DNA of 64,000 nucleotides from Desertivirga xinjiangensis (GTDB lineage: Bacteria; Bacteroidota; Bacteroidia; Sphingobacteriales; Sphingobacteriaceae), in the NCBI RefSeq assembly GCF_024436435.1, contig NZ_JAFMZP010000003.1:310001-374000 (forward strand), read 5' to 3'. The notes under the pieces are model-generated. The model was given only the letters and a program-made list of their open reading frames with translations. It had not been told where the DNA came from and made no database searches. Each line of letters opens with the position of its first letter. The stretch's first letter is position 1. Positions 33,148 to 64,000 of this stretch are shown here, in pieces. The position numbers and the translations under genes were made by a program.

Positions 33148-33559
33148 TTTCAACACTACAATAAAATACAAATATCTATTTAAAATATATTCTTATGGTT
33201 TATTAGGGTGTTAGTAATGTTAGGAAGATAGCAAACTAAAATTTGATTTTTTTGTTCTTTATAACTTTTCAACACTTTATTAACACTCTTGATAAATCAA
33301 ACTACTGAGAATTAAGAGGCTAAACTCTCATAATTTTTATGACTTGAGTTTTACTGTTAATTCTTTGATGTGTTTGAAACGTTAACAACTACGAGTTTTT
33401 CTGCTTATAACTTTTTCAAAATAGATAGAATTTTAGCCTTTTTCACAATCGAAATATAGTTATCGTAATTTTTAAACCAGTTTCTATACAAAATTAACAT
33501 CTTTACAGTGGTTTATCCACATTGACTAAAGAAGATTACATTTTACTAATTTATTTTTG
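33148..33559. other. AT-rich intergenic region: candidate replication origin
   Basis: This 412-base divergent region holds no gene. It contains two matches to the TTWTNCACA DnaA box: TTATCCACA (33513-33521, the perfect consensus) and TTTTTCACA (33439-33447). Two adjacent near-boxes are TTTTCAACA (33266-33274) and TTATTAACA (33277-33285). A repeated element, TTATAACTTTTCAA (33259-33272) and TTATAACTTTTTCAA (33405-33419), and very AT-rich stretches are also present. Hand counts on the + strand give C above G to the left (about 74 G, 96 C over 32641-33060) and G above C to the right in nadB. Two parS-like palindromes and mnmG lie about 6 kb away. This fits an oriC, but only whole-chromosome skew could settle it. 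Confidence 0.45.
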
Positions 33560-37421: not shown

Positions 37422-39284
37422 TTATCTTGACATGTGAACCATTAATACAGATATATCTGAAGGAGAAACTCCTGAAATACGTGAAGCCTGTCCTAAAGTC
37501 CGTGGTTTTATTTTCATCAATTTTTCTCGGGCTTCCTTAGAAAGGGAAACTAAGTGATTGTAGTTGAATTCGGGATTAATCTCCTGGTCTTCCATTTTCT
37601 TCATCTTACCAACTATTTCAAGTTCTTTCTCAAAATAGCTTTCATACTTCACTTTGATCTCTGCCTGCTGAATCGTATCCTGATTATATTTGTTTAGATA
37701 ATCCGTAAGCGCTTTACTCGCCTTCTTTAGATCTTCTAATCCAACCTGTGGCCTGGAAACTAACTGGAACATCTTTACGCTCTGAGTTAGGCGGGATGTT
37801 TTAAGTTCTTCCAATAGTGAGTTTACTTCGCCTGCATCGATGGACGTGTTTTTTAAGAAACGAACAATATCATCCGAATTACTTATTTTCTTGTTGACGA
37901 CATCAAGCCGTTCATCGCTAATTAAACCTAGCTTATGTCCGATTGGGCTGAGACGTATATCTGCATTGTCCTGACGAAGAAGTAATCTGTGTTCAGCTCT
38001 TGATGTAAACATACGGTAAGGCTCTTCAGTTCCCTTAGTAACAAGGTCGTCGATCAATACGCCTATATAAGACTCTGAGCGCTTCATGATCAATTCATGC
38101 TCATCATTGATTTTTTGATGAGCGTTTATTCCAGCGATAAAGCCTTGACTTGCGGCTTCTTCATAACCAGTTGTGCCATTGATCTGACCCGCAAAAAAGA
38201 GGTTATTAATTAGCTTTGTTTCTAATGTTAAGTCGAGCTGCGTAGGAGGGAAGAAGTCGTATTCAATCGCGTAGCCAGGTCTGAACATCTTAACACCTTC
38301 AAACCCTGGTATTAATTTTAAGGCCTTGTATTGAACATCTTCTGGCAATGACGTCGAGAAACCATTAACATAAATTTCTACCGTGTTCCAACCCTCTGGT
38401 TCTACAAAAATTTGATGCCTTTCACGTTCAGCAAAACGGTTGATCTTGTCCTCGATAGAAGGACAGTACCGTGGACCTAGACCTTTTATCCGTCCAGTAA
38501 ACATTGGTGATTTTTCAAAACCTTCTTTAAGGGTATCATGAACTTCGCTGTTGGTATACGTGATCCAGCAGCATCTTTCTTCGGTTGGGAGCTCGATATT
38601 GGTATAAGAAAATCTCCCGCCCTGAGGGTCTCCCCATTGCTCTTCCATTTTGGAATAATCCAGGCTTCTGCCATCTACACGTGGGGGGGTGCCCGTTTTC
38701 ATACGTCCGGATTCGAAGCCTAACTCTACCAATTGTTCTGTTAATCCTGTAGCTGATTTCTCCGCAGTCCTGCCTCCGCCAAACCGCTTTTCTCCAATAT
38801 GTATTAATCCATTTAAAAAGGTGCCGTTCGTCAGTACTACGGCCTCAGCTACGATTTCAATACCTAAAGATGTAATAACACCGGCGACCCGGTCACCTTT
38901 AACTACTAGGGATTTTACAGTGTCTTGCCAGAAGTCAACATTGGGTGTTCTCTCGAGCATCAAGCGCCACTCCTCAGCAAACTTCATCCTGTCGTTTTGT
39001 GCTCTTGGGCTCCACATTGCTGGTCCTTTAGAAAGGTTAAGCATTCTAAACTGGATCATAGACTTGTCAGTAACGATTCCTGAGTAGCCACCCATTGCAT
39101 CTATTTCCCGAACTATTTGACCTTTTGCCACTCCACCCATAGCTGGGTTACAACTCATTTGTGCTATGGTCGCCATGTTCATTGTTATTAATAACACGGA
39201 TGAACCAAGATTTGCAGCTGCAGCCGCGGCTTCACAGCCTGCATGACCTGCACCAACAACGATTATATCATATTTTTTAAACAT
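37422..39284 (-). CDS. mnmG: tRNA uridine 5-carboxymethylaminomethyl modification enzyme MnmG (GidA)
   Basis: A 620-residue FAD/NADH enzyme that, with MnmE, modifies the wobble uridine of certain tRNAs. FAD-binding N-terminus: [20 protein letters not shown]. Signature blocks: [74 protein letters not shown] and [19 protein letters not shown]; the C-terminal MnmE-binding helical domain closes with [15 protein letters not shown]. Two parS-like palindromes end 2 bases before its start codon, which may matter for its transcription. gidA lies near the replication origin in many bacteria. Confidence 0.97.
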
Positions 39285-39286
39285 TA

Positions 39287-39302
39287 TGTTCCACGTGGAA
39301 CT
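39287..39302. other. parS-like site 1 (centromere of the ParABS system)
   Basis: TGTTCCACGTGGAACT: the 14-base core GTTCCACGTGGAAC is a perfect palindrome matching the ParB-binding parS consensus TGTTnCACGTGnAACA, 2 bases upstream of the mnmG start. Confidence 0.75.
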
Positions 39303-39336
39303 TTAAAAGTGTTCCACGTGGAACACTTTTAAAGTT
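39299..39336. repeat. 38-base perfect palindrome centred on parS site 2
   Basis: The arms begin AACTTTAAAAGTGTTCCAC on the left and mirror exactly on the right, so parS site 2 is embedded in a much longer perfect inverted repeat. In the ABC-F transcript it would fold as a 19-base-pair hairpin and could also stop or stabilise that message. Confidence 0.8.
39310..39325. other. parS-like site 2
   Basis: TGTTCCACGTGGAACA is a complete 16-base match to the parS consensus, 23 bases from site 1 (start to start). It is the binding site expected for chromosomal ParB. Confidence 0.82.
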
Positions 39337-39339
39337 GTA

Positions 39340-41205
39340 TTAATATTCTTTTAATTCTAGAAGCTCCATCCACCTAATGGTGTAATTTTCTAAAGCTGCT
39401 TTATTTATTTCTATCTCTTTAGAGATTTCAGAAAGCTGAATATGGTCGCTAATTCCTGAATTTAGTCTCTGAGATAGTTCTTCTATCTTCTCTTCAATTT
39501 CAGGAATCCGTGCTTCTAAGTTCTCTAGTTCGCGCTCTTCTTTAAAACTAAGCTTGGATTTTTTCGCTGAATTCTCTTCTTTTATTTCAATCTTTTTACC
39601 AGGTGTTTTTAAGTTAGCAACTTCCTCTTCTTTTTCAAGTCGGTAATCAGTATAATTTCCATTATATATCCTTACTTTGGTATTTCCTTCTAGGATAAAA
39701 AGCTGGGTAGTTAATTTATCCATAAGGTATCTGTCGTGTGATACCAAAATCAGAACCCCTGAGTATTTTTCCAGAAAGTCTTCCAGTACGTTAAGGGTAT
39801 CGATGTCCAGGTCGTTCGTTGGTTCATCAAGAATAAGATAATTCGGATTCTTCATCAGCACCCTCATTAATTGCAGGCGTTTTCTTTCTCCACCACTAAG
39901 GTTACTTACAAACGTATGTTGTTTAGCAGGTGGGAAGAGAAAATGCGTAAGTAACTGTGATGCGGTAAGTGTTTTTCCATCAGCCATTGTTATGTATTCG
40001 GCTACATTTTTTACAACGTCTATAACACGCTCATTTTCCTGAATATCTAATCCTGACTGTTTGTAATACCCAAATTTCGTCGTTTCACCAAATTGCACAG
40101 CGCCTTCCTTTGGTTGAACCTCACCTGAAAGTATGTTTAGTAGGGTAGATTTACCACTGCCGTTTTTTCCGGCCACCCCAATTCGATCACCTTTTTTAAA
40201 CGTATAGCTGAAGTCTTCGATGATCACTTTTTCGCCGAAGGACTGACTAACGTGCTCAAGCTCGAGGATTTTGTTTCCTTGCCGGGATACCTTAGTGCTT
40301 AATTCTATTTTCTGGTTTTGATTGATTCCTTTAGTTTTACTCTCAAGATCATAAAAGGCGTCGATCCTGGATTTTGATTTTGTGCTTCTCGCTTTTGGCA
40401 TTCTGCGCATCCATTCAAGCTCCTTTTTAAGTAAGTTTCTGTTTTTTTGAAGGCTTGAAGCCTCTATTTCCTCTCGCTCACTTTTCTTTTCCAGGAAATA
40501 ACTGTATTTGCCTTGGTAGGAGTAGAGTTTTTTATTCTCCAGCTCAATGATATGATTGCAAACATTGTCAAGGAAGTACCTGTCGTGAGTTACCATAACG
40601 AGTGTCTTTTGACCAGTGGTGAGGAAACTTTCAAGCCATTCGATCATTTCAATATCAAGATGATTCGTAGGCTCATCAAGAACAAATACCTCTGGATTAT
40701 CGATCAACAGTTTCGCCAGCGCTAAACGTTTTTTTTGTCCTCCGGATAAACTTTTTATTTCCCTATCAGGATCGTGAATTGATAACCTTTGAAGGATAGT
40801 TTTTATTTCATGTTCATATTCCCAGGCGTTTAGCTCACTTAATTCGTTAATCAGGTTGCTTAGTTCAAGATCGTCCGGGTTATCTGTTGCGATAAGATGC
40901 TCATACTGCCTGATTAATTGTTGTTGCTTATTGTCGAGGCTGTAGATGTAATCAGCTATGGTTCTTTGGCCACCAAAATCGGGGTCCTGTTCTAAGTATC
41001 CTACGCTCAATCCTTTTTCTTTAACTACTTTACCCTCAGTAGGTATTAAGCGTTCGCAAAGGATTTTCATTAATGTAGATTTACCTGATCCATTAACGCC
41101 CACTAATGCTACCCTTTGACCTTTTGCAATGCCGAATGTAATATCTCTGAATAGCCAGGTATCATTAAATGAATGGCCTAATTGTTCTCCTGATAAAATG
41201 CTCAT
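39340..41205 (-). CDS. ABC-F family ATPase (Uup-like)
   Basis: A 621-residue soluble protein with two ATP-binding cassettes and no membrane domain. Cassette 1 has Walker A GVNGSGKST, signature LSGGQKKRLALAKLL and Walker B VFVLDEPTNHLD. Cassette 2 has GKNGSGKST, LSGGERKRLQLMRVL and YLILDEPTNDLD. A linker and a C-terminal coiled coil (about 540-621, ELENLEARIPEIEEKIEELS) resemble Uup. ABC-F proteins act on the ribosome, rescuing stalled translation or giving antibiotic protection; Uup also affects DNA. A minus-strand -7 box lies at 41325-41332, and the parS palindrome separates it from mnmG. Confidence 0.93.
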   Translation of the reverse strand: MSILSGEQLGHSFNDTWLFRDITFGIAKGQRVALVGVNGSGKSTLMKILCERLIPTEGKVVKEKGLSVGYLEQDPDFGGQRTIADYIYSLDNKQQQLIRQYEHLIATDNPDDLELSNLINELSELNAWEYEHEIKTILQRLSIHDPDREIKSLSGGQKKRLALAKLLIDNPEVFVLDEPTNHLDIEMIEWLESFLTTGQKTLVMVTHDRYFLDNVCNHIIELENKKLYSYQGKYSYFLEKKSEREEIEASSLQKNRNLLKKELEWMRRMPKARSTKSKSRIDAFYDLESKTKGINQNQKIELSTKVSRQGNKILELEHVSQSFGEKVIIEDFSYTFKKGDRIGVAGKNGSGKSTLLNILSGEVQPKEGAVQFGETTKFGYYKQSGLDIQENERVIDVVKNVAEYITMADGKTLTASQLLTHFLFPPAKQHTFVSNLSGGERKRLQLMRVLMKNPNYLILDEPTNDLDIDTLNVLEDFLEKYSGVLILVSHDRYLMDKLTTQLFILEGNTKVRIYNGNYTDYRLEKEEEVANLKTPGKKIEIKEENSAKKSKLSFKEERELENLEARIPEIEEKIEELSQRLNSGISDHIQLSEISKEIEINKAALENYTIRWMELLELKEY

Positions 41206-49011: not shown

Positions 49012-50526
49012 ATGTCAGAAAATGTTCGTGTTCGTTTCGCTCCAAGCCCAACCGGAGGGTTACATCTGGGTGGAGTAAGGACCGTATTATTTAACTACCT
49101 CTTTGCCAGGAAGAACGGGGGGGATTTTATTTTGCGAATTGAAGATACCGATCAAACCCGCTTTGTTCCAGGAGCTGAAGATTATATTAATGAATGTCTG
49201 AAATGGTGTGGATTGACTCCGGATGAAGGTCCCGATGCTGGAGGTGAATATGGCCCTTATCGGCAGAGCGAGCGTAAAGAGATATACAGAAAATATGCCG
49301 AGCAACTTATTGCTGATGGCAAAGCCTATTATGCATTCGATACCCAGGAAGAGCTTGAAGAAAAACGTGCTGAAATACCAAATTTCCAATATGGACATTC
49401 ATTCAGGCACGAACTGAAAAACTCATTATCGCTGGCTCCTGATGAAGTTAAGCGTTTATTGGATGAAGGAACTCCTTATGTGATCCGCATTAACATGCCG
49501 TCTGATGAAACTATTTATTTCGACGACATGATACGCGGGGAGGTAAGCTTTGAAACCGCTCTTGTTGACGACAAAGTACTTCTGAAGGCAGATGGTATGC
49601 CTACCTATCACCTGGCTGTGGTGGTGGATGATTACCTGATGAAGATAACACATGCATTCAGAGGTGAGGAATGGCTCCCGTCGGCTCCGGTTCACCTCTT
49701 ACTCTGGGAATATCTCGGCTGGAAAGAATCTATGCCCCAGTGGGCTCATTTGCCCTTGATCTTAAAACCCGACGGAAACGGAAAATTAAGTAAGAGGGAT
49801 GGAGCTCGTTTAGGGTTCCCGGTATATGCCATGAACTGGGCGGATCCTGCTACCGGTGAGCTCGCTGCTGGCTTCCGCGAAATGGGTTTTTTGCCAGAGG
49901 CATTCAACAACTTGCTGGCTATGCTCGGCTGGAATGATGGGACAGATCAGGAACTGTTCACCATGGAAGAGCTGATTGAAAAGTTTTCGCTTGAGCGGGT
50001 GAGTCATTCGGGTGCTAAGTTTGATTTTGAAAAAGCTAAATGGTTTAATGCTGAGTGGATCAAAAGAAGCAGCTCTGAGCGACTAACAGAGGAAGTTGCG
50101 TCCATTTTAGAAAAAGCAGACATAAGCATTTCTAATCAGCAGAGTTTGCCGAAAGTTATTAGTTTAGTTAAAGACCGCTGCGTATTACTGACAGACTTTG
50201 TGCCACAGGCGGAATACTTCTTCAGGCAGCCAGCGCAGTATGACCTTGACGCGGTTAAACCTAAATGGAATGATCAGAAAGAGGAATTTTTTGAATCATT
50301 TGCTTCAGAGTTGCGCGAAAGCGAGTCGTTCTCTGCCGCATTTTTAGAAGAAACATTCAAAAGGCTGGCCGCAGAAAAATCTCTGAAAATCGGGGATGTA
50401 ATGCTGCCCTTTAGAATAATGCTCGTGGGTGGAAAATTCGGGCCGACCGTATTCGATATCGCATACTTGCTTGGTAAAGACGAAACAATTGCCAGAATAG
50501 CGACGGCGATAACAAAGTTTAGATAA
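49012..50526 (+). CDS. gltX: Glutamyl-tRNA synthetase
   Basis: A 504-residue class I aminoacyl-tRNA synthetase. The HIGH-like motif is APSPTGGLHLGGVRTVLFNY (GLHLGG), and the KMSKS-like motif is LSKRDGARLG (about residue 263). RNGGDFILRIEDTDQTR-type sequence follows the first motif, and the C-terminal half is the helical anticodon-binding domain. It charges tRNA-Glu. A bidirectional terminator follows the stop. Confidence 0.97.
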   Translation: MSENVRVRFAPSPTGGLHLGGVRTVLFNYLFARKNGGDFILRIEDTDQTRFVPGAEDYINECLKWCGLTPDEGPDAGGEYGPYRQSERKEIYRKYAEQLIADGKAYYAFDTQEELEEKRAEIPNFQYGHSFRHELKNSLSLAPDEVKRLLDEGTPYVIRINMPSDETIYFDDMIRGEVSFETALVDDKVLLKADGMPTYHLAVVVDDYLMKITHAFRGEEWLPSAPVHLLLWEYLGWKESMPQWAHLPLILKPDGNGKLSKRDGARLGFPVYAMNWADPATGELAAGFREMGFLPEAFNNLLAMLGWNDGTDQELFTMEELIEKFSLERVSHSGAKFDFEKAKWFNAEWIKRSSSERLTEEVASILEKADISISNQQSLPKVISLVKDRCVLLTDFVPQAEYFFRQPAQYDLDAVKPKWNDQKEEFFESFASELRESESFSAAFLEETFKRLAAEKSLKIGDVMLPFRIMLVGGKFGPTVFDIAYLLGKDETIARIATAITKFR

Positions 50527-62194: not shown

Positions 62195-64000
62195 ATGGAT
62201 TTTAAATCTCTAAAGGAAATGCTAAAAAGAATATTTCTGGCTTTGTTTATAGTAGCGGCAATTGCTTGTAAGGCAAATTTGCGCGTGAATACCGACGTAG
62301 AAGGCTCAAATAATTTAAAGCCGGAACCTCAGCAACAACTGGTAGCTAAGGAATTGGTTAAAGTGCTCGAAAATGCACATTACAAAAAAGTAAAGATCAA
62401 CGATTCCATCTCAAATGAGATCTTCAACCGCTTTTTAAAGAGACTTGATGAAGGAAGGAATTATCTACTGGCAAGCGACGTAAAGGAATTTGAAAAGTAC
62501 CGGTATGAGCTTGATAACTACCTTCGTGAGGGCGATTTGAGTGCTTTCTTCAAAATGTTTAATACATTTCAGAAGCGCTACCAGGAGAGAATTAAATTTT
62601 CAATTTCTCAAACGTCACAAAATTTCGATTTCAACAAAAACGAAACATACATATACAACCGTGAAAAACAACCCTGGTTCAGCACTGTTGCAGCGGCCGA
62701 TGCTTCCTGGAGAGCTCGTATCAAATATGAATTGCTGAACATGAAATTGACCGATGACGAGTCGAAGATTCAACGTTCTTTAATTAAACAACGCAACCTG
62801 CCTGTAGAAAGGGACACTGCCAATATCGGTAAAACAAAAGAGCCGGCTCTGACAAATGCGGAGGTATTGAAGAAACGCTATACCAATCTTTTAACTCAGG
62901 TTCAAAAAACAAACAATCAGGATGCTTTCCAGATGATCATGGATTCTTTCACCGAAGCCATTGATCCACATACCAATTATTTCATTCCACAAAGAGCACA
63001 GGAGTTTAATGAAGAAATGGCGAGAACGTTTGAGGGAATTGGCGCCCGTTTGCAGTTGGAGAATGAAGTGGTCAAAGTAGCTGAAGTAATTCCTGGTGGT
63101 CCCGCCTTTAAAGCCAAAACACTTCAGGCAAACGATAGGATCATTGGTGTTGCACAAGGGAAAGATGGAGAGTTCCTGGATATAATCGGTTGGAGGCTTG
63201 ACAATACGGTGTCGAAGATTAAGGGTCCACGTGGAACAATTGTCCGCCTGAAGATCATACCTGCCGGCCAGGAACTATCGTCTCAGCCAAAGATCATTGA
63301 GCTGGTACGTGATAAAATAGTGTTAGAAGATCAGTCTGCTAAAAAGACAGTAAAGGTTATAAATTCCGGAAACAAGTCGTATAAAATAGGAATTATTGAT
63401 ATCCCTGGATTTTATATGGACTGGAAGGCATATCAGGCAGGAGATCCTAATTATAAAAGTACAACCCGCGATGTAAGGCTGCTGATCGATACTTTGAAGC
63501 AGCAAAAGGTTGACGGAATTGTGATCGACCTTAGAAGCAATGGCGGCGGTTCATTGCCGGAAGCCATCGAACTGACAGGTTTGTTTATTAAAACAGGCCC
63601 GGTTGTACAGGTAAGATACCCTAACAAAGTGGAAGTAGATGCCGATGACGATGCAAGTATCGCATGGACAGGCCCGCTGGGTGTGATGGTCGACAGATTC
63701 AGCGCATCAGCTTCTGAAATCTTTGCTGCTGCTATCCAGGATTATGGCCGTGGGGTGATCATGGGTACCCAAACTTATGGAAAAGGGACTGTTCAGTCGG
63801 CCATAGATATGTCCAGATTTATCAGTCCTCTCGACGAGGTTCTGCTGAAAGCGCAGGGTAACAAAACTGCTACCAATGCAAATGCTCCGAAATTTGGCCA
63901 GGTAAATTTGACTATTGCCAAATTCTATCGTGTCAATGGAAGCAGCACTCAGCACAAAGGCGTGATCCCGGATGTTCAGTTCCCGATGATTTTCCCTGCA
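62195..64000 (+). CDS. Tail-specific (C-terminal processing) protease, 3' partial
   Basis: 602 codons run from the ATG at 62195 (or 62219) to the window edge, still open. The leader ends in a possible lipobox (AIAC, Cys about 25). An N-terminal helical domain (about 40-240) precedes a PDZ domain (about 270-360, FEGIGARLQLENEVVKVAEV, KIKGPRGTIVRLKII). An S41 protease domain (about 390-560) carries DLRSNGGGSLPEAIELT, the nucleophile Ser in DRFSASASEIFAAAIQDYG and the catalytic Lys in TYGKGTVQ. It degrades or trims periplasmic proteins, as Prc/Tsp does. The C-terminal domain lies outside. Confidence 0.94.
   Translation, partial: MDFKSLKEMLKRIFLALFIVAAIACKANLRVNTDVEGSNNLKPEPQQQLVAKELVKVLENAHYKKVKINDSISNEIFNRFLKRLDEGRNYLLASDVKEFEKYRYELDNYLREGDLSAFFKMFNTFQKRYQERIKFSISQTSQNFDFNKNETYIYNREKQPWFSTVAAADASWRARIKYELLNMKLTDDESKIQRSLIKQRNLPVERDTANIGKTKEPALTNAEVLKKRYTNLLTQVQKTNNQDAFQMIMDSFTEAIDPHTNYFIPQRAQEFNEEMARTFEGIGARLQLENEVVKVAEVIPGGPAFKAKTLQANDRIIGVAQGKDGEFLDIIGWRLDNTVSKIKGPRGTIVRLKIIPAGQELSSQPKIIELVRDKIVLEDQSAKKTVKVINSGNKSYKIGIIDIPGFYMDWKAYQAGDPNYKSTTRDVRLLIDTLKQQKVDGIVIDLRSNGGGSLPEAIELTGLFIKTGPVVQVRYPNKVEVDADDDASIAWTGPLGVMVDRFSASASEIFAAAIQDYGRGVIMGTQTYGKGTVQSAIDMSRFISPLDEVLLKAQGNKTATNANAPKFGQVNLTIAKFYRVNGSSTQHKGVIPDVQFPMIFPA

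What the first reader, a model, noticed from the sequence alone, without database searches (positions are those of the whole stretch)
39287..39336. Two parS-like centromere sites just upstream of mnmG, one inside a 38-base perfect palindrome
GTTCCACGTGGAAC occurs twice within 37 bases, each matching the ParB-binding consensus; the second copy is extended to a perfect 38-base inverted repeat. A parS pair abutting the start of gidA is known from Pseudomonas-type origins, but the extended palindrome serving perhaps both as centromere and as transcript hairpin between an ABC-F gene and mnmG is unusual.
Basis: partly seen in the sequence, partly recalled or inferred. Interest (0 to 1): 0.7.

Follow-up and report, generated by a model that had tools for sequence, protein, structure and literature searches.

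The report
Paired centromere sites with self-mirroring arms
The sequence is a pair of the bacterium's chromosome-centromere sites (parS), kept beside the same gene in every relative examined and so ordinary in kind, but one of the two sits in a long perfect mirror repeat whose letters differ completely between related species while the mirror symmetry stays exact, which suggests that a DNA-copying error keeps rebuilding it.

Summary
GTTCCACGTGGAAC occurs at 39288-39301 and 39311-39324, and the second copy is the centre of a perfect 38-bp palindrome (39299-39336) between an ABC-F gene and mnmG. These are the only two exact copies in the 5.5-Mb genome. All five one-mismatch copies of GTTCCACGTGGAAC lie on the same 0.78-Mb contig. 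The contig's cumulative GC-skew minimum is 9.7 kb away, and a parA-parB operon exists elsewhere in the genome. At least one parS site precedes mnmG in 185 of 185 distinct Sphingobacteriaceae leaders, and two or more in 174. So this is an ordinary chromosomal parS pair at the inferred origin.

The palindrome is the unusual part. All three genus members have a perfect 38-44 bp palindrome centred on the distal parS, with unrelated arm sequences. Across the family 14 of 174 distal sites have 9-15-nt perfect arms; the distribution is bimodal and the origins are probably several. Arms change about as fast as unpaired spacer, stay Watson-Crick and end abruptly. There is no U-tract, so it is not an intrinsic terminator. 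Best explanation: parS's own palindrome repeatedly seeds template-switch mutations that copy the spacer into a mirror arm. Selection for an mRNA or DNA hairpin is the main rival, not excluded.

The parts
39288..39301 (.). parS, mnmG-proximal copy (GTTCCACGTGGAAC), ending 3 nt before the mnmG start codon
   Evidence: exact 14-mer; at least one such site in all 185 family leaders examined
39311..39324 (.). parS, ABC-F-side (distal) copy; with flanks a perfect 16-mer TGTTCCACGTGGAACA
   Evidence: exact 14-mer; two or more sites in 174/185 family leaders
39299..39336 (.). perfect 38-bp palindrome centred on the distal parS: two 12-nt arms around the 14-mer
   Evidence: homologous 44-bp perfect palindromes with unrelated arm sequence in L034 and L035
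37422..39284 (-). mnmG (gidA)
   Evidence: TIGR00136 E 2.5e-248
39340..41205 (-). ABC-F family ATPase; its stop codon lies 15 nt from the distal parS
   Evidence: NCBIfam ABC-F models, e.g. NF000355 over its cut-off; distance
49053..49053 (.). cumulative GC-skew minimum of the contig (inferred origin neighbourhood)
   Evidence: C20:359053
63224..63237 (.). one-mismatch parS-like site (GGTCCACGTGGAAC) inside an open reading frame

Best explanation
The two 14-mers are the main ParB-loading sites (parS) of this Bacteroidota chromosome, placed at the origin region next to mnmG. ParB, encoded with ParA elsewhere in the genome, should nucleate on them and let ParA move the new origin. The long palindrome around the distal copy is most likely a by-product. 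parS is itself a perfect palindrome, so during replication a nascent strand can fold back on it and copy the A-rich spacer between the two sites as a mirror arm on the ABC-F side. Repetition of this keeps both arms identical while their sequence drifts. Shown by computation: the sites, their copy number, the skew, parAB, their conservation, and the perfect but fast-changing arms. Inferred: ParB binding and the template-switch mechanism.
For: parS: only 2 exact copies in 5.5 Mb, and all five one-mismatch copies of GTTCCACGTGGAAC lie on the same contig, which holds 14% of the genome. GC-skew minimum 9.7 kb away; in the single-contig relative G007 parS lies 45-100 kb from the sampled skew minimum, with the maximum on the opposite side. 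parA-parB operon with typical motifs. Sites upstream of mnmG in 185/185 leaders. Palindrome: arms of 9-15 nt in 14/174 distal sites, bimodal, at a level where chance predicts well under one, and only one proximal site with an arm of 6 nt or more. All 3 genus members are perfect with unrelated arms. In one clade arm identity (0.51-0.54) is about that of unpaired spacer (0.55). No G.U within the arms, abrupt ends, right arm with the spacer's base composition and left arm its complement. Arms appear in separate places on the tree (7-10 minimum changes). L113/L115 differ by two adjacent matched double changes. Template switching is described as creating and maintaining perfect stems (PMC8794818).
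Against: ParB binding was not tested. Arms were identified by their complementarity, so the pairing counts are partly built in. In most species with 11-19 nt between the ABC-F stop and parS the arms fill that gap almost exactly, which selection for a post-stop hairpin could also produce. About 75 other 14-16 bp palindromes in the contig were not extended, so the process is not general. One clade of about ten species mostly keeps its arms, which hints at some benefit.
Confidence: 0.62

Rival explanations
1. The extended palindrome is selected as an RNA hairpin in the ABC-F/mnmG transcript, protecting the ABC-F 3' end, setting a processing site, or keeping the distal parS folded on itself so that it does not pair with the proximal parS and bury the mnmG start codon.
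For: The leader, if co-transcribed, folds strongly (z about -8). Without arms, parS1:parS2 pairing is favoured by about 10 kcal/mol; with arms the local hairpin is about equal. Arms usually begin 2-8 nt after the ABC-F stop. Covariation is strong.
Against: About 90% of relatives lack arms, and those with 20-36 nt gaps have no substitute hairpin. No G.U pairs in the arms. L270 has an 11-nt arm although its distal parS lies about 120 nt from the ABC-F stop. No Rfam match. The energy argument follows automatically from having arms.
Confidence: 0.22
2. The arms serve the centromere directly at DNA level, for example a cruciform or symmetrical flanks that help ParB load or recruit other proteins.
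For: The palindrome is centred exactly on parS, and T-rich/A-rich flanks recur.
Against: Arm sequence is not conserved, the proximal parS almost never has arms, and most species do without.
Confidence: 0.1
3. The palindrome is an intrinsic transcription terminator between the ABC-F gene and mnmG.
For: A strong stem lies between two co-directional genes; two other long palindromes in the contig do look like terminators.
Against: The arm following the loop is A-rich on both strands and no U-tract follows.
Confidence: 0.03
4. The sites are chance or unrelated palindromes, not parS.
For: None beyond the lack of binding data.
Against: Copy number, clustering, skew and family-wide conservation.
Confidence: 0.02

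Closest known systems
Origin-proximal parS sites of Pseudomonas aeruginosa (parS2/parS3, TGTTCCACGTGGAACA)
   Same: Same 14-16 bp sequence, clustered near the origin; weaker copies elsewhere (PMC4368675)
   Different: Here parAB is not close: it is on another contig, and about 1.1 Mb from parS in the single-contig relative G007; two sites 9 bp apart in the mnmG leader; one is extended to a long palindrome
parS clusters at the GC-skew origin, not always with dnaA, in gut bacteria including Bacteroidetes
   Same: parS cluster and skew mark the origin while dnaA need not be there (PMC10197239)
   Different: The passages read do not describe flanking palindromes or the mnmG linkage
Template-switch-maintained perfect hairpins (PMC8794818) and quasipalindrome-associated mutations in E. 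coli (PMC7202029, abstract only)
   Same: Perfect stems created in single events, multi-base matched changes, no need for G.U intermediates
   Different: Those concern RNA genes or mutational hotspots; here the seed is a protein-binding centromere palindrome

Membership tests
chromosomal parS (ParABS centromere) | match to the 14-16 bp consensus | tested here: met
   two exact GTTCCACGTGGAAC
chromosomal parS (ParABS centromere) | few copies, concentrated in the origin region | tested here: met
   2 exact; all five one-mismatch copies of GTTCCACGTGGAAC on the same contig, although two variants of the broader GTTYCACGTGRAAC pattern with altered cores lie on C11; skew minimum 9.7 kb away
chromosomal parS (ParABS centromere) | cognate ParA and ParB in the genome | tested here: met
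   parA-parB operon on C11; ParB matches ParB/Noc structures
chromosomal parS (ParABS centromere) | conserved at the same place in relatives | tested here: met
   185/185 leaders with at least one site, 174 with at least two; near mnmG in 28/30 class-wide loci
chromosomal parS (ParABS centromere) | bound by ParB and needed for segregation | not testable with these tools
   needs ChIP-seq, gel shift or mutants
intrinsic terminator | hairpin followed by a run of T on the coding strand | tested here: not met
   A-rich 3' arm, no T-tract
conserved structured RNA | stem present across the clade, with covariation that passes through G.U pairs | tested here: inconclusive
   covariation strong but rows chosen for complementarity; no G.U in arms; absent in about 90% of relatives; no Rfam match
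template-switch palindrome | perfect arms, abrupt ends, matched multi-base changes between close relatives | tested here: met
template-switch palindrome | direct assignment of the switch points on one branch | not tested
   needs strain-level variation or ancestral reconstruction

The most novel reading that the evidence does not exclude
Centromere sites act as seeds of localized palindrome evolution: in several Sphingobacteriaceae lineages the distal parS has independently acquired perfect mirror arms that are rewritten yet kept exact. The hairpin is then retained because it adds a function, such as stopping the two parS copies in the mnmG leader mRNA from pairing and masking the start codon, so one 50-bp stretch serves both segregation and gene expression.
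Probability: 0.2. Interest if true: 0.7.

Novelty: new variant of a known kind. Interest (0 to 1): 0.42.

Why it matters
The parS pair beside mnmG is a near-universal origin marker in this family and often in the class, useful because dnaA and parAB can lie about a megabase away. The arms give a natural series, with 14 species carrying perfect 9-15-nt arms of different sequence, in which two opposed explanations of compensatory evolution (selection on pairing against template switching) can be tested at one conserved, well-aligned locus.

Tried and rejected
Terminator: rejected for lack of a U-tract. Universal post-ABC-F hairpin: species with 20-36 nt gaps show no substitute hairpin, and L270 has arms about 120 nt from the ABC-F stop. 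Chance: rejected by copy number, conservation and the bimodal arm lengths. DnaA-box cluster near the skew minimum: none convincing. Energy comparison of local versus cross pairing: not discriminating, because arms raise local stability by construction. Searches of open papers for parS with mnmG or gidA found nothing on this arrangement in Bacteroidota.

Full report
Observation. The sequence is as described. GTTCCACGTGGAAC stands at 39288-39301 and 39311-39324. The second copy is the centre of a perfect 38-bp palindrome at 39299-39336. The genes around it are an ABC-F ATPase (39340-41205, minus) and mnmG (37422-39284, minus), read in the same direction. On the coding strand the order is: ABC-F stop, 15 nt, distal parS, 9 nt, proximal parS, 3 nt, mnmG ATG.

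Is it parS? The genome (G000, 5.5 Mb, 26 contigs) has exactly these two exact copies. All five one-mismatch copies of GTTCCACGTGGAAC lie on the same contig C20, which is 14% of the genome. With the broader pattern GTTYCACGTGRAAC, two further one-mismatch places on C11 alter the CACGTG core. If the five sites were scattered at random the chance of all falling on C20 would be about 6e-5; this is my arithmetic and the test was made after seeing the sites. The cumulative GC skew of C20 is V-shaped with its minimum at 359,053, 9.7 kb from parS at 349.3 kb. A parA-parB operon with the usual Walker and GERR motifs lies on C11, as does dnaA. In the single-contig relative G007, parS at 962 kb lies 45-100 kb from the skew minimum (864-918 kb, sampled every 54 kb), the maximum is on the opposite side, and parB and dnaA are about 1.1 and 1.0 Mb away. 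So the inferred origin is marked by parS and not by dnaA, as also reported for some gut bacteria in a set including Bacteroidetes (PMC10197239).

Conservation. All 29 relatives first fetched have the exact site next to the mnmG start. Among 185 distinct leaders all have at least one site (GTTYCACGTGRAAC with at most one mismatch) within 200 bp of mnmG, and 174 have two or three. In the class, 175 of 197 genomes have the exact motif, most often two copies, and 28 of 30 loci fetched lie near mnmG. The parS pair is therefore ordinary for the group. Species names come: the relatives G006 and G031 have contigs of the same length as Desertivirga arenae SYSU D00823 and Pedobacter sp. SYSU D00535, so the genus is most likely Desertivirga (inference).

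The palindrome. In the two other genus members the same distal parS is the centre of a perfect 44-bp palindrome, but the arms are unrelated: ACTTTTAAAG here, AAAAAAAGAC in L034 and AAAAGAAAAA in L035 (right arms). Over the family the arm length at the distal site is bimodal: 157 of 174 have 0-5 nt, 14 have 9-15 nt and 3 have 6-7 nt; only one proximal site reaches 7. With about 0.27-0.30 matching probability per position, 9-nt arms are expected in well under one of 174. On a quick tree from 510 nt of mnmG the arm trait needs at least 7 changes (arms of 9 or more) or 10 (arms of 6 or more); short sequences make that tree rough and it splits the genus, so the number is approximate, but L257 and L270 each stand alone among neighbours with short or no arms, apart from the Desertivirga and P. 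chitinilyticus groups.

How the arms evolve. In the clade around Pedobacter chitinilyticus, arm identity between species (0.51-0.54) equals that of the unpaired spacer (0.55), below the mnmG leader (0.67), yet nearly every species' arms match perfectly; L242 is the exception with a degenerate arm. L113 and L115 (95% identical mnmG start) differ by two adjacent matched changes in both arms. No G.U pair occurs in the arms; after 9-15 nt pairing drops sharply to background, and only one of 17 breaks is G.T. The right arm has the base composition of the spacer (A 0.60 against 0.59) and the left arm its complement, suggesting that the spacer is the source. The pairing test on 14 rows (covariation score 0.69 against 0.16 shuffled) must be read with care because rows were chosen for complementary arms; the unbiased evidence is the bimodal distribution and the three-of-three genus result.

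Mechanism. These features are those expected of template switching at an inverted repeat, described as creating perfect stems in one event and keeping them matched (PMC8794818). parS itself supplies the fold-back seed. In most species the arms stop 2-8 nt after the ABC-F stop codon, as expected if longer copies damage the gene. The same fact could reflect selection for a hairpin after the stop; against this, species with 20-36 nt gaps have no substitute hairpin and L270 has arms although its parS is about 120 nt from the ABC-F stop. Against a purely general process, about 75 other 14-16 bp palindromes in C20 are not extended, though many probably lie in genes. A terminator is excluded by the missing U-tract.

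RNA level. Any two parS copies in one transcript can pair: the predicted fold of the leader is parS1 with parS2, close to the mnmG start. Arms make the local hairpin about as stable. This is a testable idea for a benefit, not evidence of one.

Verdict. A conserved chromosomal parS pair at the inferred origin (about 95% sure), with a genus-wide and recurrent palindromic extension best explained by template switching seeded on parS (about 60-65%).

Noticed in passing
window 33172-33556: AT-rich 385-bp region between the divergent nadA and nadB holds the window's only exact DnaA box TTATCCACA (33513-33521); it is 6 kb from parS and could be part of the origin, but no box cluster was found.
   Followed up: partly
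window 49053 (C20:359053): Cumulative GC-skew minimum of the 782-kb contig.
   Followed up: yes
G007:C1 (parS 962 kb; parB 4.169 Mb; dnaA 4.269 Mb): In a single-contig relative parAB and dnaA lie about 1 Mb from parS and the skew minimum, so dnaA is a poor origin marker here.
   Followed up: partly
C20:228131-228168 and 659854-659889: Two other perfect 36-38 bp palindromes with T-rich 3' ends look like terminators; the second lies between convergent reading frames.
   Followed up: partly
C20:57174, 162729, 373224 (window 63224), 465690, 704061: Five one-mismatch parS-like sites, all with the CACGTG core and four inside reading frames, all on the contig that carries parS.
   Followed up: partly
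L245, proximal parS: Here the mirror arm (7 nt) is on the mnmG-proximal copy instead of the distal one.
   Followed up: no
L082, L084, L107, L247 and others, 30-36 nt gap between ABC-F stop and distal parS: A recurring stretch resembling AACAATTCTAT...TTTTCCGCGTTAT stands just before the distal parS in many Pedobacter; its role is unknown.
   Followed up: no
L348-L354: In other families of the class, parS sites lie close to the 3' end of mnmG, sometimes 3-5 copies within about 1 kb.
   Followed up: no
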